A stretch of DNA of 22,825 nt from IMG/VR virus record IMGVR_UViG_3300042936_000161, positions 1 through 22,825 of that record; one strand, written 5' to 3'. The position numbers and the translations under genes were made by a program. This stretch comes from a virus. The notes beneath the pieces are model-generated. The model made no database searches. It was not told the origin of the DNA and was given only the letters and a program-made list of their open reading frames with translations. Shown here piece by piece: positions 2 to 12,481 of this stretch; position 1 is the stretch's first letter; each line of letters begins with the position of its first letter.

Positions 2-625
2 ATGAGTTTGTATCCTGTAACACAAAAGAACCCTAAGCTAGCCGCTAATGTTGTTAAGATGTTAGATATGGGTATGGGTAATGAATTGTCAGAAGGATTA
101 TTGAATGAATTTGTTCCACCAAGTAGTGACGGAGGTGGCGAGAATGATAGAAGTCGTAGAATAAGAAAACTATTAGAAATTGCTATACAAGTAGCAAAGG
201 AAAAAAATGTCGATGAATTGGGTATGATACATGCTATGAATATGATAGCAGGTGATGACTTTTTTAGTGTAGCAGTTGAAGGTATACTACCAGATATAAC
301 AGATAAAGAATATATGTTTGTGCTACAAAGTGCTTATAAAACAGTTAAGCAAGGTTTGGCGGAAGGCGAAGAAATTGATGAAGGACCCTTTGTTCAACGT
401 CTTGGGCGCCCTAATAAAGTTAATATCTATGTAAGACATACTAAAGGAAAACCCTCTTTACTTATTGCAACTGATATTCCTTATTCAATATACGACAAGT
501 TCATAATGAAAGCTATTCAAAAATATCCACAATTTAGACAGTCAGACTTTTCATTTAAATCTGCTGATAAACTTAAGGAAGAAACTAAATTGTCCAAAAG
601 TGCTGATTATTTAGACGAAAATTAA
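2..625 (+). CDS. Modular hypothetical phage protein, start uncertain
   Basis: This 207-residue reading frame opens with an ATG at the second base of the window, so the true start may lie upstream and no ribosome site can be judged. I do not recognise an enzyme domain. It is built like the modular proteins further right: a Gly/Ser stretch follows LNE|F at residues 34-37, a helical segment spans about 50-115, and LAE|G (119-122) and IDE|G (125-128) precede a C-terminal piece of about 80 residues. These junctions fit the hydrophobic-x-Glu form of T4 prohead-protease sites, and the DNA of the LAE|G linker is identical over 17 bases to one in the gene at 3076. I infer a capsid-associated or cargo protein. 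It is followed by the glycosyltransferase gene after 57 bases. Confidence 0.6.
   Translation: MSLYPVTQKNPKLAANVVKMLDMGMGNELSEGLLNEFVPPSSDGGGENDRSRRIRKLLEIAIQVAKEKNVDELGMIHAMNMIAGDDFFSVAVEGILPDITDKEYMFVLQSAYKTVKQGLAEGEEIDEGPFVQRLGRPNKVNIYVRHTKGKPSLLIATDIPYSIYDKFIMKAIQKYPQFRQSDFSFKSADKLKEETKLSKSADYLDEN
350..366 (+). repeat. 17-base linker repeat, copy 1
   Basis: CAAGGTTTGGCGGAAGG encodes the QGLAEG linker. The same 17 bases occur at 3955-3971 in a different gene, also at a predicted module boundary. Identity at the DNA level, where only the peptide would need to be kept, suggests recombination or recent copying of linkers. Confidence 0.75.
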
Positions 626-682: not shown

Positions 683-1636
683 ATGGCAACTAAGAAAACA
701 ACTGAACAGGCAATTACTAAACCAGTAAAAGCCGCAACAAAAACTCCAGCTAAGGCTAAATCTGCAAAAACAGTTCCTGTAGAAAAATTACAGGAAATAG
801 CTGAACAGGCTGCACAAACCCCGGCCGCACCGGCCCCAGGCCAAGTACAAGTTAATGTAGATTTTTTAAAAACTACAAAGGTACACATCGCAATGCCATG
901 CTACGGTGGTATGCTAACAGAATCAACATTTATGTCATTCATCAAGTGGGCCAATACAGCCCGTCAACTTGGTATTGATTGGACATTAGAAACAATGGTC
1001 AACGAAAGTCTTATCAGTCGTGCCCGTAACACACTAACTGCTAAGTTCTTGGATATGCCAGACGCAACACATTTATTCTTTGTTGACGCTGACATTGGTT
1101 GGGAGCCATGGCATCTACTAGTTCTATTGAATCGTGATGTTGATGTTATTGGTGGTTTGTACCCAATGAAGACAATGCCAATTAAATGGGTTGTTAATGG
1201 CTTTGAAGGTGCAGAAGAAGGCCCAGATGGTCTACAAGAAGTATCTAAGGCAGGTACAGGTTTCTTATTAATGAAGAAACATGTATTTGAGAAATTAAAA
1301 TCTCATCCTGCAGTTAAGCAGTATAAGAACGACATTGGATTAGATCCAAAGTTTGACCAACACTTAAAGACATACTTTGATACAGCGGTTCGTCAGAATC
1401 GTTACTACAGTGAAGATTGGACGTTCTGTGAAAACTGGCGTGATATAGGTGGTAAGATTTGGATGGACAAACGTGTTCTATTACGTCATAGTGGTAGTTA
1501 TGTTTTCTGTATGGAAAATCAAGAACATCTGATGAAAACAGTTGGTCCTATGTTCCTACAAGAACAGCAAGAAAAATTTGGAATGAAGTTTACCGATAAA
1601 GACGGTAACGAAATTAAAAAAGTTACTGCCGCATAA
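683..1636 (+). CDS. GT-A-like glycosyltransferase
   Basis: This 317-residue protein probably transfers a sugar, on to an unknown acceptor. Residues 1-55 are a Lys/Ala/Pro-rich tail that looks unstructured. From about residue 65 the sequence resembles GT-A-fold (GT2-like) enzymes: a first beta strand with MPCYGG (71-76), an acidic DAD motif (135-137, metal and nucleotide-sugar site) after a hydrophobic strand, a GG(LY) turn near 157-160, and a later segment with SEDWTFCENW and a downstream RHSG. Phages of this group often carry such proteins. The start has a good ribosome site, AAGAGGA, five bases upstream. A strong terminator overlaps the stop codon, so transcription probably ends here. The acceptor could be virion protein, DNA or host surface sugar; the sequence does not decide. 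Confidence 0.7.
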   Translation: MATKKTTEQAITKPVKAATKTPAKAKSAKTVPVEKLQEIAEQAAQTPAAPAPGQVQVNVDFLKTTKVHIAMPCYGGMLTESTFMSFIKWANTARQLGIDWTLETMVNESLISRARNTLTAKFLDMPDATHLFFVDADIGWEPWHLLVLLNRDVDVIGGLYPMKTMPIKWVVNGFEGAEEGPDGLQEVSKAGTGFLLMKKHVFEKLKSHPAVKQYKNDIGLDPKFDQHLKTYFDTAVRQNRYYSEDWTFCENWRDIGGKIWMDKRVLLRHSGSYVFCMENQEHLMKTVGPMFLQEQQEKFGMKFTDKDGNEIKKVTAA

Positions 1637-1665
1637 TAAAGCCCCGAAAGGGGCTTTATTCTTTT
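1635..1665 (+). terminator. Rho-independent terminator
   Basis: A perfect 11-bp stem (1635-1645 with 1650-1660) closes on a GAAA tetraloop and is followed by CTTTTT. The core is AAAGCCCC-GAAA-GGGGCTTT. It overlaps the stop codon of the glycosyltransferase and insulates it from the next late transcription block. Confidence 0.93.
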
Positions 1666-1679: not shown

Positions 1680-3020
1680 ATGGACTTAAAAGAATTACAT
1701 TCATTCAAAATGTCAGATGCAGTGACATTTCACGATAACCTCAATAGTAAATTGTTTCGTGGACAGCATCTACAACCTGCCGTAGAACTACAATTAAAAA
1801 CTATAGCACAAGACTTTTTACAAGAGATGGGTATACATGATTTGGATGTACGTGATATCACTGTTTCTGGAAGTAATGCAGCCTACAGCTATACAGACCA
1901 TAGTGATTTAGATTTGCATATTCTAGTCAATATGAAAGATTTACCGGACGATGATGTATACCGTGAATTCTTCAAAGCTAAAAAAGATTTATACAATGAT
2001 TCACATGATATTACTATCAATGGAATTCCAGTAGAATTATATATACAGGATGCGTCAGAACCTGTAACTAGTTTAGGTGAATATAGTGTTAAAGATAAGA
2101 AATGGTTACGTTTACCAACAAGGCGCAGAGCTAACTTTGATCAAACAGCTACTAAAGCAAAATATGAAAAATTATTAGATGTTATTGATACCACATTGCA
2201 TTCTGATAATATGGATAAAGTTAATAAAGTATTGAAGAAGATTACGCAATATCGTCAAGCTGGATTAGATAAAGGTGGTGAGTTTGGTCCTGAAAATCTA
2301 GCATATAAAGCATTACGTAGTCGTGGCTATATTACAAAACTATATGACTTAAGAGATAAGTTACATAGCAAACATTTAAGTTTAAATGGTATGTATTCTA
2401 ATGTTAGTGAAAGTTTTGATAAACCGTATAAAGTACTTCGGTGGGAAAAGGGAGACTACGGTGATGTAGACGCAATAGCACGATTAGATGACAACACTTT
2501 TCTAAGCATTATGTTCACCAAGGGATTTAGTCAAGAGACAAAAGAGGAAGCATGGAGTGTTGAGTTTTATAGAAACAACAGTCAAGAAGTCACGGGCGAA
2601 GGTGATGCACAACGTGTATTTGCTACGGTGTTAAGTGCTATCCAAACATTTATTAAAAAGTACAAACCCAACAAGGTGTTTTTTGCGGCAAACAAAGTAG
2701 ATGACACCGGACACGACTTACAAAGCAGAGCTAGTCTATATGACAAGTTAGTTCAGCGTTATGCCAAATCTTGGGGCTTTAGAGCATTTCGTGCTGACAC
2801 CGGTAATAAAGTTATGTACGAATTGAGTAGAATTAATAAGAACGTAGAAGAAGCATCCGGGTATATTCCTAGTGAAAAACAAAAAAATGACCCACGTTTT
2901 AGTACAGCATTAACAGTAGATGTTAAGCCTGATAGTATTAAAAAGAACGCAAAAGCATTCTATTGGAATACTAGTAGAGCAGGTATTCCTCCAACAGCAA
3001 AGCCATCAGGCAAAATCTAA
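1680..3020 (+). CDS. Modular protein: nucleotidyltransferase domain plus two phage modules
   Basis: The N-terminal part of this 446-residue protein is a pol-beta-fold nucleotidyltransferase: G64-S65, then D76-x-D78 in SDLDLH, and a third acidic strand with E119 in PVELY, so the catalytic triad is complete. The substrate is unknown. After VSE|S (242-245) comes a module of about 145 residues with a GNAT-like look (a GEGDA loop, then RASLYDKL and a WGFR strand near 350-368). After VEE|A (389-392) a short tail starting SGYIPSEKQK closes the protein; I recall similar tails on other phage modular proteins. Both boundaries fit prohead-protease sites, so I infer that the three parts are released in the capsid. 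The start is close to the ATAAATAC motif; a Met at codon 11 (1710) is an alternative. No capsid-targeting peptide is evident. Confidence 0.7.
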   Translation: MDLKELHSFKMSDAVTFHDNLNSKLFRGQHLQPAVELQLKTIAQDFLQEMGIHDLDVRDITVSGSNAAYSYTDHSDLDLHILVNMKDLPDDDVYREFFKAKKDLYNDSHDITINGIPVELYIQDASEPVTSLGEYSVKDKKWLRLPTRRRANFDQTATKAKYEKLLDVIDTTLHSDNMDKVNKVLKKITQYRQAGLDKGGEFGPENLAYKALRSRGYITKLYDLRDKLHSKHLSLNGMYSNVSESFDKPYKVLRWEKGDYGDVDAIARLDDNTFLSIMFTKGFSQETKEEAWSVEFYRNNSQEVTGEGDAQRVFATVLSAIQTFIKKYKPNKVFFAANKVDDTGHDLQSRASLYDKLVQRYAKSWGFRAFRADTGNKVMYELSRINKNVEEASGYIPSEKQKNDPRFSTALTVDVKPDSIKKNAKAFYWNTSRAGIPPTAKPSGKI

Positions 3021-3045
3021 TAAGTTTCTATATTATGGTATTTTG

Positions 3046-3053
3046 ATAAATAC
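3046..3053 (+). promoter_or_regulatory. Late promoter-like ATAAATAC
   Basis: GATAAATAC (3045-3053) lies 22 bases before the ATG at 3076. This leaves room for a short leader, unlike the copies at 1669 and 8723. It probably drives the cargo operon 3076-8635. Confidence 0.65.
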
Positions 3054-3075
3054 ACTAATAGTATGGGAATCCGTT

Positions 3076-4110
3076 ATGAAAATCAAACAAATCACTGAAA
3101 CTACGACAGCAGGCGCAATTGCTACAACAGAAACCGCATTAGGTGGTACTCAAAGTAGAGGAAATCCTAGCATATATGGTGGTAAAAAAGTAGGCTCACT
3201 ATTCAAGGGTAAAAAAACTAAAGCCCCATATGCTAATAGCATTAATGAAAGTGCTGAACTAAGTGAAGCACAACTAGAAGAAGATGATATTATTGTTGTT
3301 CCTGGTCAAGGTCGTAGTCGTAAAAACGGACTCGTTCCACATGGTCAAAGTCGTATAGACCACGAAGTTGAGATGGCACGTAGTGATTTATTCAGTGCCG
3401 CAAAGAATGCTCAACAAGTTTATTCAATGATTAAAGATGTTGGTGAAGACGAAGGACTTGATGGTTGGGTACAAGAAAAGATTATTAAAGCTAATGACTA
3501 TCTAAACACTATACGTGAATACTTAGAAGGTAAACAAGTTCAGAGTGTGACGGAAGGGGCTGAAATCATGTATGCTGAGGAACTGGCAGAAAAACTTTTT
3601 GACCGATCTCCTAATTTGCAAAACGAAGATGACATCTTGACCAGAGGATTCCAGTTATCCAAAAAAGACCCTAGAATAGGTAGTAGAGTTAACGCTATAT
3701 TCCGCACCGAAGATTTCCCTAGCGACTTTGTAAGTTATTACCGATATATACAACATAATCATGGTATATCAAGTGGTATGAATGAAGGTGAAAATAGAGT
3801 TGATACGCTGGTCACTGATACAGAAGCCGTAATGAGAGAATTTAAAATTGATGCTCTACCAGCATTAAAAATTGTGCTGGGAGAGAGAGAATACAAAGAC
3901 CGTCCTGGTTATTATAATACCTTTATTAGACAAATTATTGCTAGATCAAAACAACAAGGTTTGGCGGAAGGTGCTAAAGTAGACCGTATGGTTAAACATG
4001 TAGCACAATCAGAAAAGAAATTAGGCAAGAGTAAAGACGAAGCAGAAAACATTGCGTGGGCAACAGCTAACAAACGTGGCATGTTAAATAATAAGAATAA
4101 GAAAGCGTAA
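3076..4110 (+). CDS. Multi-module candidate capsid cargo polyprotein
   Basis: This 344-residue protein starts at the ATG after the late promoter motif; the frame is open for 52 more codons, but that stretch overlaps the previous gene and lies upstream of the promoter. The first eight residues, MKIKQITE, resemble the T4 capsid-targeting peptide, which is removed after a hydrophobic-x-Glu. Further candidate junctions are INE|S (56-59), VTE|G (158-161), MNE|G (235-238) and LAE|G (296-299). They split the chain into a basic Gly-rich piece, a helical module of about 100 residues (with LDGWVQEKI), a module of about 77 residues, one of about 60, and a Lys-rich tail with the ENIAWATANKRG motif. I recognise several of these as recurring phage modules of unknown function. 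The next gene starts two bases after the stop, so the pair is probably co-translated. Confidence 0.7.
   Translation: MKIKQITETTTAGAIATTETALGGTQSRGNPSIYGGKKVGSLFKGKKTKAPYANSINESAELSEAQLEEDDIIVVPGQGRSRKNGLVPHGQSRIDHEVEMARSDLFSAAKNAQQVYSMIKDVGEDEGLDGWVQEKIIKANDYLNTIREYLEGKQVQSVTEGAEIMYAEELAEKLFDRSPNLQNEDDILTRGFQLSKKDPRIGSRVNAIFRTEDFPSDFVSYYRYIQHNHGISSGMNEGENRVDTLVTDTEAVMREFKIDALPALKIVLGEREYKDRPGYYNTFIRQIIARSKQQGLAEGAKVDRMVKHVAQSEKKLGKSKDEAENIAWATANKRGMLNNKNKKA
3955..3971 (+). repeat. 17-base linker repeat, copy 2
   Basis: This is identical to 350-366 and encodes QGLAEG just before the C-terminal AKVDRMVKHV module of the 344-residue protein. A related, imperfect form (GTGACGGAAGGGGCT) is found at the VTE|GA junction near 3547. 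Confidence 0.75.
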
Positions 4111-4111
4111 T

Positions 4112-7100
4112 ATGAGCAATATTCTTAAAGGTATAATAAACGAAGTTGATCCACATAACTATGACAGTGATTGGGATTATCAGGATGCGGTAGCACGTAG
4201 TGGCAAATCACGTTCTAGTTATCGTTCACAAGAAGATGATACATCTGATGCTGATATTGAATACTCTAAAAAGATGTATCAACTAAGCCAAAAACAAAAA
4301 CGTGACAGTGACCATGATAGATTAGCAACTGGTACTAATGAAGATAATACCACTCAAACTAGAATGAGAATGAATGATTATTATGATGTAGCTGATGCTC
4401 TTCAGGAAAAGCTTAAACAAGCAATTAAGCTGGGTAATGACGAACTTGTACATGAATTATCTAAAGAACGTGCTGACTTAGATGCACGTGTTAAAAAATA
4501 TGGATTAGTTCCCGAAGATGTAGTAGAAGGATCTAAAAAAGAAGAAGAATACGGTCCTGAATGGGATGCAAAAGTAAAACGTATAGGTCAAATAGCTAAA
4601 GAAGGTCCTCGTAAAACTGTTTGGGATCCTGTCAAGCGTGTTTATAAAACGGTTCCAGTTAAACAATCTGGCATTAAACAAGGTATAAATGAATTTTCCC
4701 CTATTAAACCCCCTACTGCCGGAGCATTTGGTGGCAATAAAGATTATGGTCAGCCCACCAGTTCACGTTACTTGGGCAACAACAAGTTTGTAGTAGGAAC
4801 TACCAACAACTATGTGTTGACTGCAACTGTGGACAAATGGGGCCTGGAATGGGACGAGGACGATGAAATATGGTTCTTGGACAGTCCTGGTGCTGTGTAC
4901 ATTGCTGATGCTACTGAAGGTGAAATAGAATTACCTGCTCCACAAGAACAAAGAAATCAAATACACGATTTGGTAAGTGATTATCTTAACGCTAGAAATT
5001 CTGCCGACTTACAAAAGGTAGCCGCATATTTTGGTCATAGTCCTGATGGTGAAATGGCAACAAATGAAGCTGTTTCAGGAAATAGATTTAACAGTAAACA
5101 AGAAGTTATTAATCATTTTGTTAAAAACGGTAAAAGTGCGGCAGCAGGCGCAGCGGCATGGGAACGTGGTTATAGAGGTTCATCTAAGAAACCAATAGAG
5201 TTAAAAAAACCACCACAAAGAAGTTACCATGATGAACTAGATGACAAACGTTATGATACATTTGAAAACTTAGGTGATCAATTAAAATCTAAATCATTAG
5301 AAGCATTAATGCAACTTAAGCAACAAATTGAACAAAAAAGTATGGATGATTTAGCTCAATGGGAACAAGATTTTAGAAATAATGTTGCTAATAAGATGAG
5401 AAGTCAACCAATACTTCCACCAGAAGCAACCCCAGTTGCACAGCCCGGTGAGAAACATTCTATATTAAAATCTAGATTAGCACAATTGAATAATGCTATT
5501 CAGAAACAAGAACTATTAGATAAGTTAGTTGATAGATTAGACCGTAAAGGTTTAATGACTCCTGCAATGCAGAATGATACCGATACTAGTATGCACGTTA
5601 AGTATGGTGCAAAAGATAACTATCAATCATTAAATAAAAAGTTAGACAATGCTATTTCAATGTTACAGGATAGATTGTATATACGTAAAAAGTCAGGTTT
5701 GAAAGAAGTACATGATGAGCGTGATGAATATGATAATCCTAGACAAGGTAGAGATTATGGCAAAGGCAATCTATTTGTAGATCCAGGCTCAAATGAATTT
5801 AAGAAAGAAGTACATCTTGGCGCTAATGACGGTGAACGAGGCAGACCTAAAAATCTAAAAGGTGTTTCAAAAGCATTGCCAGCTGATGCGTTTGGTCGTA
5901 CTACAGGTAAGATTCCGGATAGTGCAAGACCTACGTCAAATCCAGATCCCTTTCCTCCAGTTAAGATTTTAAAAAATCACGAAAAGTGGATATATCCTCC
6001 TAAATCAAAGAAAAGTGTGGATGAAGCTGATATGAGCCGTAGAGGATTTTTAGGAAACGTAGGTAAGGCAGCCGGTGCTGGCGCATTAGCTGCCGCAGGA
6101 TTAGGTGGTGCAGGTAATGCTCAGGCATTTAAGGGAACACTTCCCGCACGTGCTCCTCGTATCTCTGAAGATGAGGCCGAAGCTCAACTTAAAGAATTAA
6201 AAAGTACAGCATATAAAGAGTTAGCAAGTATGGTATGGGGTGCATGGCCTAGTATACTGGATACGACTTTTGGTGTTGGCACACCTGCAGATAAGCCAGC
6301 AACACCTGAACAAATTGGTAAAATGTTAGGATACAGATTAGCTGAATATGCTGAAGAATATAGACAAAAAGTTAGAGCAGTTAAAGTAGCAGCCGGAGTA
6401 AGAGATCCTCAAAGTTTAAATAAAACAACTGCCGCAATTTATGTTAATGAACAAGAGATGGATGAGGGCTGGAGTCAAAAGTATAAAAGTAGTATCAACT
6501 GTAGTCATCCTAAAGGTTTTAGTCAAAAGGCGCATTGTGCTGGTAAAAAAAAACACAATGAAAGTATTGACAATGTTATGGAGATGACTTGTCCTGATTG
6601 TGGTATGTGTGAAACTCACGGTGACAATTCAAAAGATCAATTAGATGAATTGAAATGCTGGTCTGGTTATCATAGAGTTGCTGGTACAAAAGCTGGCTTT
6701 CCAGGTAGTTGTGCAAAAAATAAAACTAATGAAGAACAACATAGTTGCCCACACTGTGGTGGCGAAATGGTTAGTGAAGAATTAATGAACGAAAAGAAAG
6801 ATGCTTGCTACTACAAAGTTAAGAGCCGTTATAAAGTATGGCCAAGTGCTTATGCCAGTGGTGCATTAGTTAAATGTCGTAAAAAAGGCGCAAGCAACTG
6901 GGGCACAGGCGGAAAGAAAAATGAAAGCTCTATACTAGAGGGTATTGAACAAGCAGATGAAAGTTTGCACGATTGGTTCAATAAAGAAAAATGGGTTCGT
7001 ATGGATACTAAAGGAAACATTAAAGGTCCATGTGCAAAAGAACCAGGAGAAGGCAAACCAAAATGTTTGCCACAAAGTAAAGCACATAGTCTAGGTAAAA

Positions 7101-7201
7101 AGGGTCGTGCTAGTGCCGCTCAACGTAAGCGTAGAGAAGATCCTAATCCAGAGCGTAGTGGTAAAGCTATCAATGTTGATACAAAGAAAAGTAAAGGTTA
7201 A
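4112..7201 (+). CDS. Giant modular candidate capsid cargo polyprotein with internal Tat signal
   Basis: This chain of 1029 residues has no single recognisable function. It begins MSNILKGIINE|V, like a T4 capsid-targeting peptide. Candidate prohead-protease junctions follow at VVE|G (139/140), INE|F (194/195), TNE|A (319/320), VDE|A (638/639), MDE|G (785/786), ILE|G (943/944) and ADE|S (950/951). In order I see charged helical segments (12-139), a short WDPVKRVY peptide (171-178), a beta-rich module with WGLEWDEDDE (243-252), Gln-rich possible coiled coil (390-470), a Tat-type signal plus a module of about 110 residues (641-780), and then Cys-rich and basic mini-modules: GWSQKY (786-817), CPDCGMC (827-833), CWSGYH (849-854), CPHCGGE (879-885), KSRYKVWPSAYASG (904-917) and a SLHDWF basic tail (951-1029). 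The set looks assembled by shuffling. The Dps-like gene follows after two bases. Confidence 0.68.
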   Translation: MSNILKGIINEVDPHNYDSDWDYQDAVARSGKSRSSYRSQEDDTSDADIEYSKKMYQLSQKQKRDSDHDRLATGTNEDNTTQTRMRMNDYYDVADALQEKLKQAIKLGNDELVHELSKERADLDARVKKYGLVPEDVVEGSKKEEEYGPEWDAKVKRIGQIAKEGPRKTVWDPVKRVYKTVPVKQSGIKQGINEFSPIKPPTAGAFGGNKDYGQPTSSRYLGNNKFVVGTTNNYVLTATVDKWGLEWDEDDEIWFLDSPGAVYIADATEGEIELPAPQEQRNQIHDLVSDYLNARNSADLQKVAAYFGHSPDGEMATNEAVSGNRFNSKQEVINHFVKNGKSAAAGAAAWERGYRGSSKKPIELKKPPQRSYHDELDDKRYDTFENLGDQLKSKSLEALMQLKQQIEQKSMDDLAQWEQDFRNNVANKMRSQPILPPEATPVAQPGEKHSILKSRLAQLNNAIQKQELLDKLVDRLDRKGLMTPAMQNDTDTSMHVKYGAKDNYQSLNKKLDNAISMLQDRLYIRKKSGLKEVHDERDEYDNPRQGRDYGKGNLFVDPGSNEFKKEVHLGANDGERGRPKNLKGVSKALPADAFGRTTGKIPDSARPTSNPDPFPPVKILKNHEKWIYPPKSKKSVDEADMSRRGFLGNVGKAAGAGALAAAGLGGAGNAQAFKGTLPARAPRISEDEAEAQLKELKSTAYKELASMVWGAWPSILDTTFGVGTPADKPATPEQIGKMLGYRLAEYAEEYRQKVRAVKVAAGVRDPQSLNKTTAAIYVNEQEMDEGWSQKYKSSINCSHPKGFSQKAHCAGKKKHNESIDNVMEMTCPDCGMCETHGDNSKDQLDELKCWSGYHRVAGTKAGFPGSCAKNKTNEEQHSCPHCGGEMVSEELMNEKKDACYYKVKSRYKVWPSAYASGALVKCRKKGASNWGTGGKKNESSILEGIEQADESLHDWFNKEKWVRMDTKGNIKGPCAKEPGEGKPKCLPQSKAHSLGKKGRASAAQRKRREDPNPERSGKAINVDTKKSKG
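6032..6127 (+). other. Internal Tat-type signal peptide
   Basis: Residues 641-672 of the 1029-residue protein read M-S-R-R-G-F-L-G, then an Ala/Gly-rich hydrophobic stretch, then A-Q-A|F. This has all three parts of a twin-arginine signal: SRRxFL, an h-region and an AxA cleavage site. It lies two residues after the candidate prohead-protease junction VDE|A, so cleavage there would expose it near a new N-terminus. An internal start at the ATG (6032) is also conceivable. Confidence 0.6.
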
Positions 7202-7203
7202 TA

Positions 7204-7644
7204 ATGTTATCAGATAATTTAAAAGTACTATTAGCTAGTACACAAAGTTTTGCTATCAAAACACAAAACTTCCATTGGAATACAGAAGGAAGTAATTTCC
7301 CACAATATCACAAATTCTTTAATACATTGTACAAAGATGTAAATGCCACTATTGATCCTATTGCTGAATATATCAGAATCTTAGGTCACTATACTCCTGG
7401 CAGTTTGTCACGTTATACTGAATTAAGTATCATACAAGACCAAACTAAAGTGCCAAGAGCAGAACTTATGTTTGTTGAGTTACTACAAAATTGTGAAACA
7501 ATGTCAGAACTTGTTGTTGCTATGTTTGACGAAGCTACAAATGAACGTCAACAAGGTATTGCTAACTACATGGCTGAATTACAAGACTTATACGGTAAGA
7601 AAGCATGGTTCATTCGTTCTACATTAAAAAGAGAACGTGAGTAA
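7204..7644 (+). CDS. dps: Dps-like ferritin-fold protein
   Basis: The 146 residues match the Dps family, iron-oxidising 12-mers that protect DNA. The family signature NFHWNTEG lies at 22-29. Without gaps, the E. coli Dps ferroxidase ligands H51, H63, D78 and E82 correspond to H24, H36, D51 and E55 here; the D67 position is Asn40. The protein lacks the Lys-rich N-terminal DNA-binding tail of E. coli Dps, but ends in a basic KRERE. It lies directly behind the cargo polyproteins in what looks like a late transcript, with AAAGG before the start, and overlaps the next gene by one base (TAATG). It could be packaged or act late on host iron or oxidative stress. Identity as a Dps-family protein is firm; activity is not, given Asn40. 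Confidence 0.88.
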   Translation: MLSDNLKVLLASTQSFAIKTQNFHWNTEGSNFPQYHKFFNTLYKDVNATIDPIAEYIRILGHYTPGSLSRYTELSIIQDQTKVPRAELMFVELLQNCETMSELVVAMFDEATNERQQGIANYMAELQDLYGKKAWFIRSTLKRERE

Positions 7645-8192
7645 TGAGGGCAACAGAATTTATTAATAAGGAAATACCTTTTGCAGACGGGTATTTGGTT
7701 GTGAGCAAACACTTTATTAATGATAGAAGTGATGGTTCCAATCGTAACATTCCTATAGAAAAAGTCCTTCGAGTTTTACATAAGTTAGAAACTACACGTG
7801 GACATGAACTAATGAAAATGCCATATATTACTTTTGCAGTTAAAACTCCTGATTTAGGAGTAGCAGTAGCCAAACAAAAAGATAATCAAGGTGAAAATGC
7901 ATATATTGTATTAACAGCACATCCTACGTTACAATTATCACCGGATGAGGATGTATTTTATTTAGAAGAACAAGAAAATCCTAAAATAGATTTGACACCA
8001 AACTATCCTAACTATGAAGTATTAGTGGGAGAGTTTATTGGCATGAAAAAGAATAGAGCAAGATTCTTAATTGTAGCATCTGAACTTAAGCCAGGGGTAC
8101 GTGAGACAGATAAGATATTTAGAGCAAAAACAACTAATACTCCAATCAGTGTTGAAATAAGTAAAGTACGTAATCGTACAGTAGTAGGATAA
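7644..8192 (+). CDS. Hypothetical phage protein, two-part
   Basis: I do not recognise a defined function for these 182 residues. The N-terminus MRATEFINKE resembles that of the metallopeptidase at 8735 (MRAIELYE), although it lacks a proper hydrophobic-x-Glu before a small residue. Residues about 15-95 (KHFINDRSDGSNR, then VLRVLHKLE and an AVKTPDLGVAVAK strand) look like a small alpha/beta module that I recall in other phage modular proteins. Residues about 105-182 are a second, beta-rich piece. Its start codon overlaps the Dps stop (TAATG), and the thermonuclease begins two bases after its stop, so it sits firmly inside the late operon. A role as virion cargo is inferred from the company it keeps. 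Confidence 0.6.
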   Translation: MRATEFINKEIPFADGYLVVSKHFINDRSDGSNRNIPIEKVLRVLHKLETTRGHELMKMPYITFAVKTPDLGVAVAKQKDNQGENAYIVLTAHPTLQLSPDEDVFYLEEQENPKIDLTPNYPNYEVLVGEFIGMKKNRARFLIVASELKPGVRETDKIFRAKTTNTPISVEISKVRNRTVVG

Positions 8193-8194
8193 AC

Positions 8195-8635
8195 ATGAAA
8201 AAAATATTAATAGCAATAACACTAACATTAACAACTATGGTAGTATTTGCTCAAAAACAAAAGCCAATGAATATATATGACTTCCCAATCACTAGAGTTA
8301 TTGATGGAGATACTGTAGCATTTCAAGCAACATTTTTACCCCCACCGTTAAAACAAGAATTAAGTATTCGTGTGTTTGGTGTTGATACACCTGAAAAAGG
8401 TCATAGAGCGCAATGTCCAAGTGAAGATCAACGTGGTCAGGCTGCTTCTGCATTTACAAAGAATGCTATAGCTAAAGCACAGAAACGTCAAGTAGCTATT
8501 GCCGATTGGGATAAGTATGGTGGACGTGTATTGGGTGATATAATACTTGATGGACAAAGTTTAAGAATGATGTTAATACAGAATGGATTTGCAAGAGAAT
8601 ACTACGGAGAAGCTAAAACTTCTTGGTGTAACTAA
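8195..8635 (+). CDS. Secreted thermonuclease (staphylococcal nuclease family)
   Basis: This 146-residue enzyme should hydrolyse DNA and RNA with calcium. Residues 1-19 are a Sec signal peptide (MKK, then a hydrophobic stretch ending VFA|Q). The SNase core has all the known active-site residues: D39 in DGDT, R59 in SIRVFG, D64 and E67 in VDTPE, and R111 in YGGR, matching D21, R35, D40, E43 and R87 of the staphylococcal enzyme. The length after the signal (about 127) is near the minimum for the fold. It starts two bases after the upstream gene in the late operon. Export to the periplasm would keep it off the phage genome inside the cell, and suggests action on extracellular or periplasmic nucleic acid during or after lysis. 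Confidence 0.88.
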   Translation: MKKILIAITLTLTTMVVFAQKQKPMNIYDFPITRVIDGDTVAFQATFLPPPLKQELSIRVFGVDTPEKGHRAQCPSEDQRGQAASAFTKNAIAKAQKRQVAIADWDKYGGRVLGDIILDGQSLRMMLIQNGFAREYYGEAKTSWCN

Positions 8636-8734: not shown

Positions 8735-9310
8735 ATGAGAGCAATAGAACTATACGAATCAGCCGCAACTGACCTAGCTAAGAAACTTCCTAGCTTAGAG
8801 AAGCACGACTATAATACCATTGATAAGTTAATGAAAAAGATAGCAAAGAAACATCGTATAACCGGTGATGCATTGCATGATTTGTTTGTTAGAAAATATC
8901 ATAAGACTCCAGACAGTTGGATTAAAGACAAACTAGATGAGAATGAACAAGAAGATTTGAATAGTAATCCTATTGTAAAGAAGTTTCTTGCTTGGACAAG
9001 TAAGAAGTTGAATTTAGAAAATACTCCAAAGATAGAGTTTAGTTATGATAGCGAAGAAGCACAAGAAGGTCATCATACTGGTAGACATAATCCAGATACG
9101 GGTGAAGTATGGGTTTATTGTGCCAATAGAAATTTAGTAGATATACTACGTACGGTGTTTCATGAATTAACACATGTACGTCAGGGTGAATTAAATATGA
9201 TTAAGCCCGGTGATAGTTATCCAGGTAGTCCAATAGAAGCAGAAGCAGACGTAATGGCTGGCAAGTATATTAAAATATTTGGCAAGGCCCATCCAGAAAT
9301 ATTTCAATAA
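8735..9310 (+). CDS. Zinc metallopeptidase with capsid-targeting-like N-terminus
   Basis: The 191-residue protein starts MRAIELYE|S, resembling the T4 capsid-targeting peptide cut after hydrophobic-x-Glu. Residues about 13-65 form a small helical module (KKLPSLEKHDY, then ALHDLFVRKY and WIKDKL) that I recall from many T4-like phage proteins. The C-terminal part is a gluzincin-like peptidase: H143-E144-x-x-H147 in FHELTHVRQ, then a helix with IEAEAD (167-172) that offers the third zinc ligand. A GTG at 8717 is in frame, but it lies upstream of the ATAAATAC motif and would hide the targeting-like peptide, so I prefer 8735. No Shine-Dalgarno is present. The target may be host surface or periplasmic protein, or virion protein; this is inference. 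Confidence 0.75.
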   Translation: MRAIELYESAATDLAKKLPSLEKHDYNTIDKLMKKIAKKHRITGDALHDLFVRKYHKTPDSWIKDKLDENEQEDLNSNPIVKKFLAWTSKKLNLENTPKIEFSYDSEEAQEGHHTGRHNPDTGEVWVYCANRNLVDILRTVFHELTHVRQGELNMIKPGDSYPGSPIEAEADVMAGKYIKIFGKAHPEIFQ

Positions 9311-9320
9311 AGAGTAACAA

Positions 9321-10244
9321 ATGTCAATAACAATTACAGGTGGAATAACATTAAATGGTGGTGGTTGGACTATAGTTGCACCACCGGAAGGTAAAAAAGC
9401 TATATTTGGATTTGGAAATACTGGTGTTGCTAGTGTAGCAATAACTAACTTAGTAAGTAATACCGGAGTAGTTGCAACAGATACAGCAGGCGTCGGTACT
9501 GCTAGTGAGCAACGTGCGGCCTCAGGGTACGGCACAGATAAAGCTATATTTGGTTATGGAGTTACTAGTGTTAGGATATCAATAACTAATTTAGTAAGTA
9601 ATACCGGAGTAGTTGCAACAGATACTTCAGGTGTTGGTACTGCTAGACGACTTTTGGCGGCCGCAGGTTATGGAACTGATAAAGCTATTTTTGGATATGG
9701 AAATACTAGTGGCGGTGATGTATCAATTACCAATTTAGTAAGTAATACAGGTGTGGTTGCTACTGATACAACAGGAGTTGGTACTGCTAGAAGTAATTTA
9801 GCAGCCGCAGGTTATGGCACAGATAAAGCTATTTTTGGTTATGGGGAAAGTCCTGCTACGGCAATAACTAATCTAGTATCAAACACAGGCGTAGTTGCAA
9901 CAGATACTTCAGGAGTTGGTGTTGCTAGATTCGGATTAGCAGCCGCAGGTTATGGAGGGGATAAAGCTATATTTGGCTATGGATTGGCAGCATCGCCATT
10001 TGGGGCTACCGCTATAACCAGCCTAGTATCAAATACGGGTGTTGTTGCATCAGATACAACTGGTGTCGGTACTGCTAGATATTATCTTGCAGCCGCAGGT
10101 TATGGCACTGATAAAGCTATTTTTGGTTATGGTAATGGTCCAGTATCAATGACCAACTTAGTATCAAACACCGGGGTAGTTGCTACAGATACTACAGGGG
10201 TAGGTACTGCTAGAACTACATTATCGGCCGCAAGTTACGGTTAA
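9321..10244 (+). CDS. Six-repeat propeller-like surface protein, paralog 1
   Basis: This 307-residue protein has an N-terminal peptide MSITITGG, a GGGWTI turn and APP, then six repeats of 45-52 residues. Each repeat runs KAIFG(Y/F)G, a variable loop of 6-11 residues, TNLVSNTGVVATDT, GVGTAR and (L)AAAGYG. The layout resembles the kelch-like repeats of phage structural proteins, and six copies would close a six-bladed beta propeller. The loops after FGYG are the only strongly variable part (for example NTGVASVA, ESPATA, LAASPFGATA). I infer a tail or capsid surface decoration or receptor-binding role. It follows the metallopeptidase by ten bases with only a weak ribosome site (AAGAG). Confidence 0.7.
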   Translation: MSITITGGITLNGGGWTIVAPPEGKKAIFGFGNTGVASVAITNLVSNTGVVATDTAGVGTASEQRAASGYGTDKAIFGYGVTSVRISITNLVSNTGVVATDTSGVGTARRLLAAAGYGTDKAIFGYGNTSGGDVSITNLVSNTGVVATDTTGVGTARSNLAAAGYGTDKAIFGYGESPATAITNLVSNTGVVATDTSGVGVARFGLAAAGYGGDKAIFGYGLAASPFGATAITSLVSNTGVVASDTTGVGTARYYLAAAGYGTDKAIFGYGNGPVSMTNLVSNTGVVATDTTGVGTARTTLSAASYG

Positions 10245-10281
10245 ACAAAAATCATACACATTAAAAGAAAAGTAATAAAAT

Positions 10282-11220
10282 ATGTCAATAACAATAACAG
10301 GTGGGATTTCATTTAGTGGAAGTTTAGATATAGTTGCACCACCGGCTGGTAATAAAGCTATATTTGGATATGGAAATACAGGAATTGCACCATTTAATAC
10401 AGCAATAACCAACCTAGTAACAAACACCGGTGTAGTTGCAACAGATACTACAGGTGTTGGTACTGCTAGGAATGGACTTACGGCTGCTGGATATGGTACT
10501 GATAAGGCTATATTTGGATATGGGTATGCTAATCCGTCAGCACAATCAATGACTAATCTAGTATCAAATACAGGTGTTGTGGCTACAGACACTGCAGGTG
10601 TTGGTACTGCTAGAGATACACCTGCGGCCTCAGGTTATGGAACTGATAAAGCTATATTTGGATATGGACAGACGGCCGGCGGGTCAAAGCTTTCAATGAC
10701 CAATCTAGTATCAAACACCGGGATAGTTGCTACTGATACTACAGGCGTTGGCACTGCTAGAAACGCACTAGCAGCCGCTAGTTATGGCACTGATAAAGCT
10801 ATATTTGGATATGGAACAAGTCCTGTTACGGCAATAACCAATCTAGTATCAAATACTGGTGTTGTTGCTAATGATACTGCAGGTGTTGGTACTGCTAGAT
10901 ATTCATTAGCAGCCGCAGGTTATGGCACTGATAAAGCTATATTTGGATATGGTCTCGGAGGTGGTGGTTATCTATCAATGACCAATCTAGTAAGTAACAC
11001 TGGTGTAGTTGCATCAGATACTACCGGAGTTGGTACTGCAAGATACGGTCCAGCGGCTGCAGTCTACGGAACTGATAAAGCTATATTTGGATATGGAAAT
11101 AGTGTTGATGGTTACGTATCAGTGACCAATCTAGTATCAAATACAGGTGTAGTTGCTACTGATACAACTGGTGTTGGTACTACTAGAGGTACATTGGCGG
11201 CTGCAGCCTACGGTTCGTAA
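10282..11220 (+). CDS. Six-repeat propeller-like surface protein, paralog 2
   Basis: These 312 residues have the same plan as the gene at 9321: MSITITGGISF leader, APPAG, then six KAIFGYG repeats. Its loops differ (NTGIAPFNTA, YANPSAQS, QTAGGSKLS, TSPVTA, LGGGGYLS, NSVDGYVS). Loop 1 (NTG...) and loop 4 (SP-TA) match the same positions in paralog 1, which points to whole-gene duplication followed by loop change. The 37-base gap before it holds no ATAAATAC motif and no clear Shine-Dalgarno, so it is probably expressed from the 8723 promoter. The last repeat ends at AAAYGS followed directly by the stop, as in the other paralogs, consistent with a closed ring. The ligand is unknown. Confidence 0.7.
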   Translation: MSITITGGISFSGSLDIVAPPAGNKAIFGYGNTGIAPFNTAITNLVTNTGVVATDTTGVGTARNGLTAAGYGTDKAIFGYGYANPSAQSMTNLVSNTGVVATDTAGVGTARDTPAASGYGTDKAIFGYGQTAGGSKLSMTNLVSNTGIVATDTTGVGTARNALAAASYGTDKAIFGYGTSPVTAITNLVSNTGVVANDTAGVGTARYSLAAAGYGTDKAIFGYGLGGGGYLSMTNLVSNTGVVASDTTGVGTARYGPAAAVYGTDKAIFGYGNSVDGYVSVTNLVSNTGVVATDTTGVGTTRGTLAAAAYGS

Positions 11221-11233
11221 AATTAGAATTAGC

Positions 11234-11241
11234 ATAAATAC
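11234..11241 (+). promoter_or_regulatory. Late promoter-like ATAAATAC
   Basis: CATAAATAC (11233-11241) lies 22 bases before the ATG at 11264, with AAAGGA (11251-11256) in between as ribosome site. It separates paralogs 1-2 from a second unit of the 71-residue gene and paralogs 3-4. Confidence 0.65.
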
Positions 11242-11263
11242 ATTTATTATAAAGGAAAATAAA

Positions 11264-11479
11264 ATGATAGACTTAGAAAACATGCCTGCTCCAACAGCAG
11301 AGGAAATTGCAGAAGCAAGAGAAAATGCATTTAATGCAGAACATCCAGCATCATGGACATGGAACGAAGAGGCAACTTCATATGTTGCTCCAGTTGCTAT
11401 TCCAAGTGATGGTTATCCATACTTATGGGATGAAGCTACAACTAATTGGGTACCATTTCCGGATTATCCAAGAGATTAA
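11264..11479 (+). CDS. Small Trp-rich phage protein
   Basis: The 71-residue protein starts at the ATG eight bases after AAAGGA and behind its own late promoter motif; the frame is open further upstream, but that part lies before the promoter. It is acidic and has two related motifs, WTWNEEATSYV (residues about 32-42) and LWDEATTNWV (about 55-64), separated by PSDGYPY. I recall similar Trp-motif proteins next to tail-fibre or structural genes of cyanophage-like T4 relatives, where the function is unknown. Paralog 3 starts three bases after its stop, so the two are probably co-translated. A chaperone or adaptor for the propeller proteins is a reasonable guess from position only. Confidence 0.7.
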   Translation: MIDLENMPAPTAEEIAEARENAFNAEHPASWTWNEEATSYVAPVAIPSDGYPYLWDEATTNWVPFPDYPRD

Positions 11480-11482
11480 AGA

Positions 11483-12460
11483 ATGTCGGTAACATTTAGT
11501 GGTGGCGGTGTAACAATATCAGGCGGAGGATGGACTCTTACTGCCGCGCCACCGTCAACTCCAACGGCAGGATGGTTTGGTGGCGGCCTCTCGGCACCCT
11601 TTTCAACAGTAGACCGTATTACATATGCAATTGATACTGCAACAGCTAGTGTGCGTGGTCCACTTTTTCAGACCATAGCCAGGTTGGCCGCAACAGGTAA
11701 TACCACTGATGGATGGTTTGGTGGTGGTACCGGCCAAGGCGGAACCCTAACATCAACAGTTAATAGAATCACATATGCAATTGATACTGCAACAGCTAGT
11801 GTACGTGGTCCACTAAGTTCGGCTAGACGATATTTAGCCGCAACCGGCAATACAACTGATGGATGGTTTGGTGGTGGTATTGATACGTTAGCTAACGTAT
11901 CAACAGTAGATAGAATCACATATGCAACTGATACTGCTACAGCTAGTGTACGTGGTCCACTAAGTTCGGCTAGACGATATTTGGCTGCATCCGGCAATAC
12001 AACTGACGGATGGTTTGGTGGTGGTTTATTATCGGTATCCCTTTCAACTGTAGCACGAATCACATATGCAACTGATACTGCAACAGCTAGTGTTCGTGGT
12101 CCACTAAGTTCTGCTAAATATGGCCTTGCCGCAACCGGTAATACTACATATGGTTGGTTTGGTGGTGGGTATATGCCTGGCACCGGCGTCGCCGGCGGTA
12201 TTTCAACGGTAGATAGAATCACATATGCAACTGATACTGCTACAGCTAGTGTACGTGGTCCACTATCTTCGTCTAGACGATATTTGGCTGCATCCGGCAA
12301 TACAACTGACGGATGGTTTGGCGGTGGTGTTGGGATCGGTGGACCTAGCGTATCAACGGTAGATAGAATCACATATGCAACAGATACTGCAACTGCAAGT
12401 GTACGTGGTCCACTTAGTTTAGCTAGACATGCTTTGGCATCAGCTTCCGGCATACAATAA
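11483..12460 (+). CDS. Six-repeat propeller-like surface protein, divergent paralog 3
   Basis: The 325 residues keep the N-terminal plan of the neighbours (MSVTFSGG, SGGGWTLTAAPP) but carry a different repeat: GWFGGG, a variable loop, STVDRITYATDTATASVRGPL, then SSARRYLAATGNTTD, six times. The strand order (small hydrophobic, Gly-rich turn, variable loop, long strand, Ala-rich strand) is the same as in the KAIFGYG type, so the fold is probably the same propeller. Its loops are longer, up to about 13 residues (YMPGTGVAGGI). The shared leader with a swapped repeat body suggests that the leader is the attachment part. A long open frame on the opposite strand (11668-12453) is a by-product of the repeats. 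Confidence 0.7.
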   Translation: MSVTFSGGGVTISGGGWTLTAAPPSTPTAGWFGGGLSAPFSTVDRITYAIDTATASVRGPLFQTIARLAATGNTTDGWFGGGTGQGGTLTSTVNRITYAIDTATASVRGPLSSARRYLAATGNTTDGWFGGGIDTLANVSTVDRITYATDTATASVRGPLSSARRYLAASGNTTDGWFGGGLLSVSLSTVARITYATDTATASVRGPLSSAKYGLAATGNTTYGWFGGGYMPGTGVAGGISTVDRITYATDTATASVRGPLSSSRRYLAASGNTTDGWFGGGVGIGGPSVSTVDRITYATDTATASVRGPLSLARHALASASGIQ

Positions 12461-12481
12461 TAATATAAAGATTTAAAAAGA

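What the first reader, a model, noticed from the sequence alone, without database searches (positions are those of the whole stretch)
1680..7201. Candidate capsid cargo polyproteins cut into modules by a prohead protease
Seen: three adjacent proteins have domain boundaries at VSE|S, VEE|A, ITE|T, INE|S, VTE|G, MNE|G, LAE|G, INE|V, VVE|G, INE|F, TNE|A, VDE|A, MDE|G, ILE|G and ADE|S, nearly all before a small residue. Two begin with short peptides (MKIKQITE, MSNILKGIINE) like the T4 targeting peptide MKTYQEFIAE. Known: T4 gp21 cuts after (L/I)-x-E, and its internal proteins are packaged by such peptides and injected. Inference: the polyproteins are loaded into the prohead and released as many small proteins, a multi-effector delivery device.
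Basis: partly seen in the sequence, partly recalled or inferred. Interest (0 to 1): 0.85.

Follow-up and report, generated by a model that had tools for sequence, protein, structure and literature searches.

The report
Self-dividing cargo proteins in phage heads
A T4-like phage seems to string many small proteins into long chains, load them into its head, and let its own head protease cut them apart there, some with a hidden export tag that would only work once cut free; relatives of two of the three chains have been found in virus particles, but the cutting itself has not been shown.

Summary
The three proteins (A 1680-3020, B 3076-4110, C 4112-7201) are mosaics of shuffled modules. Points where homology between relatives starts coincide with hydrophobic-x-E: 163 of 309 against 93.6 expected, 0 of 2000 shifts; D, K and Q show nothing. 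Against a collinear sister phage, 6 of 7 DNA homology blocks in A-C end within 2 nt of such a Glu codon. Codons vary, so the constraint is on protein. The 348-kb sister carries T4-type gp21 protease, gp22 and gp23. Homologues of A and C were detected in purified virions of cyanophage S-CREM2 (PMC10665884, Table 3). New here: twin-arginine-like signals inside the chains, directly behind a predicted cut in 12 of 12 contexts of a scan that left the preceding residue free; they would be N-terminal only after cleavage. Best reading: prohead-cleaved, virion-delivered multi-cargo polyproteins, a cross between T4 internal proteins and 'polyvalent proteins'. Not shown: cleavage, injection, effector activity. 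Against: A has no clear targeting peptide; V is common at P3 where T4 gp21 uses L/I; the raw motif count is weak; Pfam does not recognise the window's own Tat-like segment.

The parts
1680..2411 (+). A module 1: Pol-beta-type nucleotidyltransferase (GSN...SDLDL), ends VSE|
   Evidence: phrog_36119 4e-45; relatives match Pfam NTP_transf_2 (only the S-CREM2 one over cut-off); homologue S-CREM2 ORF156 detected in virions
2412..2852 (+). A module 2: DUF6934-like, weak GNAT-like fold, ends VEE|
   Evidence: Pfam below cut-off, 2e-5; Foldseek top hits mostly GNAT acetyltransferases, best E 3e-3; absent in G001, DNA homology stops at 2412 and resumes at 2844
2853..3017 (+). A module 3: C-terminal basic module ASGYIPSEK..., pI 10
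   Evidence: 36 of 36 distinct upstream contexts have [LIVMFT]xE just before it; pI
3076..3099 (+). B: N-terminal peptide MKIKQITE|, capsid-targeting-like
   Evidence: conserved in G001 and relatives; GATAAATA octamer 31 nt upstream
3100..3555 (+). B modules up to VTE| (internal INE|S at 3249/3250 not supported as a break)
   Evidence: homology ends at 157-160 in relatives; DNA homology with G001 ends at 3557
3556..3786 (+). B module ending MNE|
   Evidence: 3 starts and 2 ends there in relatives
3787..3969 (+). B module RVDTLVTD..., ends LAE|
   Evidence: related VDSLVT module: 8 of 8 contexts preceded by the motif
3970..4107 (+). B C-terminal basic module GAKVDRMVKH..., pI 10.2
   Evidence: 22 of 25 contexts preceded by the motif; relatives in cyanophages
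4112..4144 (+). C: N-terminal peptide MSNILKGIINE|, capsid-targeting-like
   Evidence: alignment A1; DNA homology block with G001 ends at 4144
4145..4693 (+). C modules to TNE| (4342) and INE| (4693)
   Evidence: indels there in relatives; DNA homology block ends at 4342
4694..5068 (+). C module FSPIKPP..., ends TNE|; absent in L018 and L057
5069..5707 (+). C module AVSGNRFNS..., ends LKE|
   Evidence: DNA homology with G001 stops at 5708
5708..6025 (+). C module ending VDE|; absent in G001
   Evidence: DNA homology resumes at 6015
6026..6466 (+). C module ADMSRRGFLGN...AQA: twin-arginine-like signal plus about 110-aa cargo, ends VNE|/MDE|
   Evidence: 12 of 12 distinct contexts in viral contigs have [VIL]xE before ADMxRRGFL; Pfam TAT_signal at the same place in five relatives but not in this copy
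6467..6649 (+). C module GWSQKYKSSINCSHPKGFSQ..., ends LDE|
   Evidence: 22 of 23 contexts preceded by the motif
6650..6793 (+). C modules CWSGY... (TNE|) and CPHCGG... (MNE|)
   Evidence: 39 of 44 CWxGY contexts preceded by the motif; LEE|KKNCWPGY in virion protein S-CREM2 ORF160
6794..6940 (+). C module KKDACYYKVKSRYKVWPSAYASG..., weak DUF5872, pI 9.9
   Evidence: ISE|GKKDACYHKVKARY in virion protein S-CREM2 ORF160
6941..7198 (+). C C-terminal basic module SLHDWFNKEKWVRMD..., pI 9.8
   Evidence: phrog_23735 and phrog_12753; same module in another order in S-CREM2 ORF160
7644..8189 (+). Probable further cargo: MRATEFINKE start, module swap near LEE|QENPK; relatives add a Tat-like signal and a GH19 domain
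8735..9307 (+). Probable further cargo: MRAIELYES start, HExxH; G001 homologue has a sigma-70 region 4 module between LDE| and ITE|
   Evidence: Sigma70_r4 7.9e-19 in the G001 homologue; no Pfam family in the window copy

Best explanation
A, B and C are late-made polyproteins of a T4-like phage. They enter the prohead core, helped by N-terminal targeting peptides (clear in B and C, not in A). There the phage's gp21-type protease cuts after hydrophobic-x-E between modules and leaves about 18 small proteins inside the head. These go into the next host with the DNA as enzymes or effectors (nucleotidyltransferase, perhaps a GNAT-like enzyme; in relatives and companion chains GH19 hydrolase, sigma-70 region 4, amidoligase, ASCH). 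Modules with a Tat-like signal are silent in the chain, because the signal is internal, and would be exported by the host Tat system only after the cut. Shown here: modular shuffling at the motif, constraint on protein rather than DNA, and gp21 in a sister genome; published mass spectrometry shows homologues in virions. Inferred: late synthesis, the cutting and its place, injection, and Tat export.
For: Breakpoints: 60 polyproteins clustered at 85% identity give starts 242/460 (1.79x) and ends 183/383 (1.63x), ten control residues 0.66-1.11x. At 70% identity, 40 polyproteins give starts 163/309 vs 93.6 and ends 130/250 vs 77.4, 0/2000 shifts each; a second set gives starts 53/84 vs 35.4, 0/2000. 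By P3 class, L/I 89 vs 50.0 and V 77 vs 38.3 stand out, 0/1000 each. Window vs G001 DNA: 6 of 7 block ends in A-C within 2 nt of the end of a [LIVMFT]xE, 4.2% expected per position; starts are looser, 1 of 7 within 2 nt and 5 of 7 within 10 nt (17% expected). Module-anchored: SGYIP 36/36, VDRM 22/25, KYKxSINC 22/23, RRGFL 20/20. P3 codons vary: V by GTG 39, GTA 34, GTT 15, GTC 10. gp21 (1.7e-28), gp22 and gp23 in G001. MR-starting N-termini: 21/41 carry [LIVMF]xE at residues 5-12 vs 12% of 606 others. Virion detection of homologues ORF156 and ORF160 in S-CREM2, which has a homologous gp21. Tat-like signals behind the cut: 12/12. In T4 an Asp in place of the Glu inhibits processing (PMC9026906 passages), which fits the absence of D enrichment.
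Against: No cleavage product seen. V is the commonest single P3 residue among the scored junctions (39%) while T4 gp21 wants L/I; A/S at P3 is also slightly raised in the first set (67 vs 51.3, 6/1000) but not the second. A lacks a clear targeting peptide. A stricter targeting-peptide pattern in G001 gives E 8 vs D 9, and [LIVMF]xE near all 394 starts is no commoner than inside (90 vs 91). Ends of the second set are not significant (182/2000). The window's own Tat-like segment gets no Pfam hit, and one Tat-like copy (L033, ISRRGFA) has no Glu motif before it. C could not be modelled (pLDDT 38). In A both junctions lie in low-confidence stretches, but so do 3 of 6 other [LIVMFT]xE sites. Homologues in Syn9 and S-SM1 are not labelled structural. 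S-CREM2 authors warn that virion regulatory proteins may be carry-over.
Confidence: 0.68

Rival explanations
1. Cut in the prohead, but mainly core or DNA-condensing material like T4 gp22, gp67 and gp68: fragments serve assembly or are expelled, and are not injected effectors.
For: 8 of 21 predicted fragments are basic, pI 9.2-10.2. T4 core proteins are cut into many fragments that mostly leave the head (PMC9026906 passages).
Against: Enzyme domains in these and companion chains (NTase, GH19, amidoligase, sigma-70 region 4) and Tat-like signals behind the cuts have no evident use in assembly. 5 of 21 fragments are acidic, pI 4.3-5.1. A gp22-like and an acidic gp67-like gene exist separately in G001 (my reading of the gene order).
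Confidence: 0.14
2. Modular proteins with conserved linkers that are never cut; hydrophobic-x-E is only a tolerated insertion point.
For: Raw motif counts are only modestly above chance.
Against: D, K and Q in place of E show no excess at breakpoints. Tat-like signals would be useless inside a chain, yet follow the motif in 12 of 12 contexts.
Confidence: 0.1
3. Cut by another protease, or only after injection into the new host.
For: V at P3 and the common QGVxE context (P5 Q 24%, P4 G 28%) differ from gp23's LLAE site and from T4's L/I-x-E. An HExxH protein lies nearby (8735-9310).
Against: The Glu-only P1 fits known prohead proteases. L/I at P3 is enriched much as V is at breakpoints of the first set, and a targeting-type N-terminus in G001 has V at P3 (MRAIEFVTE).
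Confidence: 0.08

Closest known systems
T4 internal head proteins (IPI-III, Alt) with capsid targeting sequence and gp21 processing (PMC9026906, passages read)
   Same: Short N-terminal targeting peptide ending in Glu, protease after x-x-E, cargo in the head; gp21, gp22 and gp23 in a sister genome.
   Different: T4 internal proteins are one cargo per gene; here many modules per chain, reshuffled at the cut sites, with export-like signals hidden behind some.
Polyvalent proteins (PMC5512222; passages and section 8 read)
   Same: 2-15 disparate domains in one polypeptide, predicted injected, including Pol-beta NTases and GNATs; likened there to polyproteins.
   Different: There, release is ascribed to embedded peptidases (zincin-like; assemblin-like at the C terminus). 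A, B and C hit no peptidase family and carry candidate sites for a separate prohead protease. The words 'signal peptide', 'twin-arginine' and 'periplasm' do not occur in the main text held.
phiKZ and SPN3US head proteins (PMC10052503, PMC9026906; passages read)
   Same: Prohead protease cuts after Glu, several cuts per propeptide.
   Different: Motif A-x-E (SPN3US) or S/A-x-E (phiKZ); in SPN3US 13 of 14 sites remove N-terminal propeptides, not a string of kept modules.
S-CREM2 virion proteins ORF156 and ORF160 (PMC10665884, Table 3)
   Same: Homologues of A module 1 and of C's last modules, detected in virions.
   Different: Shorter; the NTase stands alone and the C-type modules are in another order; listed there as hypothetical proteins.

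Membership tests
T4-type CTS/gp21-processed internal head proteins | N-terminal targeting peptide ending in (L/I)-x-E | tested here: met
   B MKIKQITE, C MSNILKGIINE; 21 of 41 MR starts in held sequences. Not clearly met for A, and no excess over all 394 G001 genes.
T4-type CTS/gp21-processed internal head proteins | gp21 (peptidase S77) in the phage | tested here: met
   Not in the 22.8-kb window, but in collinear sister G001 and in G004, 2 of 17 records searched
T4-type CTS/gp21-processed internal head proteins | Present in the virion | tested here: inconclusive
   Only through homologues: S-CREM2 ORF156 (6 peptides) and ORF160 (7 peptides); Syn9 and S-SM1 homologues not labelled structural, S-E7 and RN05-S ones are
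T4-type CTS/gp21-processed internal head proteins | Cleavage after (L/I)-x-E by gp21 | not testable with these tools
   Sequence sites only; at breakpoints both L/I (89 vs 50.0) and V (77 vs 38.3) are enriched at P3
Polyvalent proteins | Several domains of disparate activity in one chain | tested here: met
   NTase plus DUF6934/GNAT-like in A; an A relative adds amidoligase, a C relative ASCH below cut-off
Polyvalent proteins | Embedded peptidase, common though not universal (about 36% have an MPTase) | tested here: not met
   No peptidase family in A, B or C at E 1
phiKZ/SPN3US-type cleaved head proteins | Cleavage motif S/A-x-E | tested here: not met
   At breakpoint starts A/S-x-E 67 vs 51.3 (6/1000) in set 1 and 13 vs 10.7 (260/1000) in set 2, far below L/I and V in set 1
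Tat substrates | N-terminal S/T-R-R-x-F-L-K signal with hydrophobic stretch and A-x-A | tested here: inconclusive
   Motif and hydrophobic stretch present; Pfam TAT_signal in 5 of 16 relatives scanned, chosen partly for it, one over cut-off (L096); none in the window copy; N-terminal only if the chain is cut

The most novel reading that the evidence does not exclude
A phage delivery device in which the head protease is the switch: effectors are stored as silent polyproteins, freed only inside the maturing head, and each freed piece carries its own address (Tat or Sec signal for the periplasm, none for the cytoplasm). New effectors are added simply by inserting a module between two cut sites.
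Probability: 0.45. Interest if true: 0.93.

Novelty: new variant of a known kind. Interest (0 to 1): 0.82.

Why it matters
If true, a T4-like phage delivers not a few but many proteins at the start of infection, and the cut-site grammar lets one read effector libraries straight from sequence. The family is large: 66 loci for C and 93 relatives for B in viral contigs, some of them near-copies. C-type modules match 373 phage records, 361 of them named Synechococcus, Prochlorococcus or cyanophage; most rows listed are called hypothetical. The latent Tat-like signal gives a simple, testable prediction.

Tried and rejected
DNA-level recombination linker: rejected as the sole cause, because codons at P3 and P2 vary; a preferred QGVxE protein context remains.

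Raw motif counts: too weak to decide, replaced by breakpoint tests.

Targeting-peptide enrichment over all G001 genes: not seen; it appears only in MR-starting proteins.

Structure of C: too poor to use. Foldseek of A against PDB: nothing at E 0.001 or better. Profile search of PDB sequences with the A alignment: one hit at E 0.97.

T4 late promoter: TATAAATA occurs once in the window, fewer than expected by chance and not before A-C; GATAAATA lies 12 nt before A and 31 nt before B, and TATAAATA 31 nt before the gp67-like gene of G001; only suggestive.

Tat module (of L111) and SGYIP module in isolated phages: no match.

Papers: the listings of searches (several capped at 10-20 rows of up to 130) showed no paper on prohead-protease-cut effector polyproteins or on Tat signals in head cargo; subscription journals and preprints are not in that library. 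Supplementary tables (for example S8 of PMC3037559) could not be read.

Full report
WHAT IS THERE. The window is a 22,825-bp virus record from a T4-like phage: it has a family B DNA polymerase and is largely collinear with part of a 348,701-bp contig, G001, that carries a T4 head cluster. DNA polymerase to clamp is 91% identical in DNA over 3.5 kb, and the polymerase protein 96% over 755 aa. The finding covers three adjacent genes: A (446 aa), B (344 aa from the ATG at 3076) and C (1029 aa).

DOES THE OBSERVATION HOLD. Counting motifs against shuffles is a weak test: [LI]xE 20 vs 14.4 (P 0.067), [LIVM]xE 38 vs 23.6 (P 0.001), A alone not enriched. Comparing relatives is a strong one. A scan of viral contigs with C gave 66 loci, in which 103 distinct ORFs, the window's own included, match A, B or C in different orders and combinations. 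Homology between pairs tends to start just before and stop on a [LIVMF]-x-E. With 60 polyproteins clustered at 85% identity, starts are 242/460 within 8 residues of the motif against 29% expected, ends 183/383; ten other residues in place of E give 0.66-1.11x. With 40 polyproteins clustered at 70% and breakpoints shifted along each protein: starts 163/309 vs 93.6 (sd 7.5), ends 130/250 vs 77.4 (sd 6.9), 0 of 2000 shifts for each, D, K and Q unremarkable. A second set of 30 from the B scan, which shares some contigs with the first (only identical proteins were removed), gives starts 53/84 vs 35.4 (0/2000) but ends 59/127 vs 52.1 (182/2000), so the ends do not replicate there. By residue at P3, starts of the first set show L/I 89 vs 50.0 and V 77 vs 38.3 (0/1000 each), M and T slightly raised (25 and 12/1000), A/S slightly (67 vs 51.3, 6/1000), and F, G, charged and N/Q not; the second set shows mainly V (34 vs 19.0), with F raised on few cases (6 vs 2.2). 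Pairs share ancestry, so these are not independent events.

A second view anchors on the inside of each module and asks what stands before it. Distinct upstream contexts with [LIVMFT]xE within six residues: SGYIP 36/36, VDRM 22/25, KYKxSINC 22/23, CWxGY 39/44, VDSLVT 8/8, TRMRM 9/9, RRGFL 20/20, WFxxxxWVR 16/24, KKDACY 26/27 (the last mostly behind the same upstream module, so little evidence). The patterns were chosen after seeing the modules, and related sequences are among the contexts. A tenth pattern matched only one context.

The closest case is DNA against DNA. Within A-C, window and G001 align in blocks; 6 of 7 block ends lie within 2 nt of the end of a [LIVMFT]xE: 2412 (VSE), 3557 (VTE), 4144 (INE), 4342 (TNE), 4516 (VPE), 5708 (LKE); the seventh, 3943, does not. 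Of all positions 4.2% lie that close. Block starts are looser, 5 of 7 within 10 nt against 17% of positions. Two differences are clean module losses: G001 lacks A residues 247-388, between VSE|S and VEE|A, and C 533 to about 635, between LKE|V and VDE|A. G001's A homologue has 304 aa and reads ...NVDE|MYVGE|ASGYIP....

PROTEIN OR DNA. Codons at the junctions differ: V by GTG 39, GTA 34, GTT 15, GTC 10; L and I by 6 and 3 codons; E GAA 241, GAG 21 against 2949 and 573 in all positions. So it is not one fixed DNA linker, although QGVxE is a favoured context (P5 Q 24%, P4 G 28%).

WHO WOULD CUT. G001 and G004, 2 of 17 related records searched, hold a peptidase S77 (gp21) at E 1.7e-28 and 1.9e-27, next to gp23; the other 15 records are 46-316 kb and may be fragments. 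G001's gp23 begins ...KKQLLAE|SSAGTTTAGN (the cut is inferred by analogy with T4). T4 gp21 cuts after L/I-x-E, and an Asp in place of the Glu inhibits processing but still allows targeting (PMC9026906, passages). The absence of D enrichment at breakpoints fits that. The frequency of V at P3 does not match T4 exactly.

TARGETING. In 726 distinct N-termini of held sequences, 21 of 41 that start with MR carry [LIVMF]xE at residues 5-12, against 12% of 606 others and 16% of 79 MK starts. Over all 394 G001 genes no excess is seen. A lacks a clear peptide.

ARE THEY IN VIRIONS. S-CREM2, a T4-like Synechococcus phage with a homologous gp21 (44% over 149 aa), has ORF156, 36% identical to A module 1, and ORF160, which carries C's last modules in another order with I/L-x-E between them: LSE|ARDGKSAKDKGYSLHDWF, LEE|KKNCWPGY, ISE|GKKDACYHKVK. 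Table 3 of PMC10665884 lists both in purified virions: 6 and 7 unique peptides, 15.2% and 13.1% coverage (passages and section 18 read). The table's ORF154 is a cytidylyltransferase two genes before ORF156. G001 has a protein with a cytidylyltransferase-like domain, just under Pfam's cut-off, two genes before A; the window's first ORF (2-625) matches its C-terminal part. The two cytidylyltransferases match each other only weakly (E 0.005). Against: Syn9 gp114 and the S-SM1 homologue are not labelled structural; those in S-E7 and RN05-S are. The authors warn of possible carry-over for the regulatory proteins.

LATENT EXPORT SIGNALS. C from residue 636 reads VDE|ADMSRRGFLGNVGKAAGAGALAAAGLGGAGNAQA, a twin-arginine-type signal in the middle of the protein. 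A scan of viral contigs for ADM[S/N/D/G]RRGFL, with the preceding codon free, found 24 sites with 12 distinct upstream contexts. In all 12 the preceding residues are [VIL]xE, and all are internal, with 45-632 aa of open frame upstream. Most upstream modules differ, two pairs are related; part of the likeness may be inherited with the module. Pfam TAT_signal matches five polyproteins, one above its cut-off, but not the window's own copy. In L020 such a signal (VLE|DLSRRGFLGG) precedes a GH19 hydrolase domain, 3.6e-16; in L033 the same arrangement has no Glu motif before the signal (IIADDISRRGFA). A signal of this kind is expected to work only at an N-terminus (established knowledge), so its fixed place right behind the motif argues for real cutting. 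Sec-like hydrophobic starts behind a junction were also seen by eye (L057, L104).

CARGO. A: nucleotidyltransferase (phrog_36119, 4e-45), then a DUF6934-like domain whose predicted fold is GNAT-like at best (E 3e-3). Relatives or neighbouring chains carry amidoligase, ASCH and HD domains (ASCH and HD below cut-off). A G001 protein starting MRAIELYES has a sigma-70 region 4 module, 7.9e-19, between KLDE| and YITE|, absent from the window copy at 8735. With the junctions used the chains fall into 21 pieces: two targeting peptides of 8 and 11 aa and 19 pieces of 20-244 aa (18 if the unsupported B58 is left uncut); 8 are basic (pI 9.2 or more) and 5 acidic (pI 5.1 or less).

STRUCTURE. For A the low-confidence stretches 231-246 and 387-399 cover both junctions, but 3 of 6 other [LIVMFT]xE sites also lie in low stretches. 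C could not be modelled (mean pLDDT 38).

HOW IT MOST LIKELY WORKS. Late synthesis; loading into the prohead core; cutting by gp21 after hydrophobic-x-E; fragments kept with the DNA; entry into the next host; enzymes act there and Tat-tagged pieces go to the periplasm. Only the modular grammar, the protease gene in a sister phage and the virion presence of homologues rest on data.

COMPARED WITH WHAT IS KNOWN. It works like T4 internal proteins with their targeting peptides and like the 'polyvalent proteins' of PMC5512222 (passages and section 8 read). It differs from the first in carrying many kept modules per chain, and from the second in lacking an embedded peptidase and in carrying hidden export-like signals. 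The listings of searches in an open-access library showed no paper describing this combination.

Noticed in passing
window 2-625; G001 293902-295008: The first ORF matches the tail of a longer protein that in G001 starts with a cytidylyltransferase-like domain followed by further hydrophobic-x-E junctions.
   Followed up: partly
L073 16987-17937 (G001 284983-285936): A sigma-70 region 4 domain is inserted between two x-x-E junctions of a protein with a T4-like N-terminus and an HExxH motif; the window homologue at 8735 lacks it. Possibly a virion-delivered sigma module.
   Followed up: partly
L020 14077-15327, L033 8771-9967: GH19 (chitinase-type) hydrolase domain directly behind an internal Tat-like RRGF segment; in L033 the Glu-ending motif is not present before it (IIADDISRRGF).
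   Followed up: partly
window 9321-13420: Four genes built of repeated TDKAIFGYG/TNLVSNTGVVATDT or TDGWFGGG units, with relatives in G001 and G004; no Pfam match in the one tested.
   Followed up: no
window 1635-1660: Terminator-like hairpin of 11 pairs just before A, followed by GATAAATA 12 nt before the start codon.
   Followed up: no
window 7204-7644: Ferritin-domain (Dps-like) protein directly after C.
   Followed up: no
window 8195-8635: Staphylococcal-nuclease-like protein with a hydrophobic, signal-like start.
   Followed up: no
window 13476-14072: PP-loop ATPase (Pfam ATP_bind_3), probably a tRNA-lysidine-synthase-like gene.
   Followed up: no
window 3100-3130 vs L071 gene at 12319: B after its first junction reads TTTAGAIAT, gp23 of G001 after LLAE reads SSAGTTTAGNIAT; the likeness is unexplained.
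   Followed up: no
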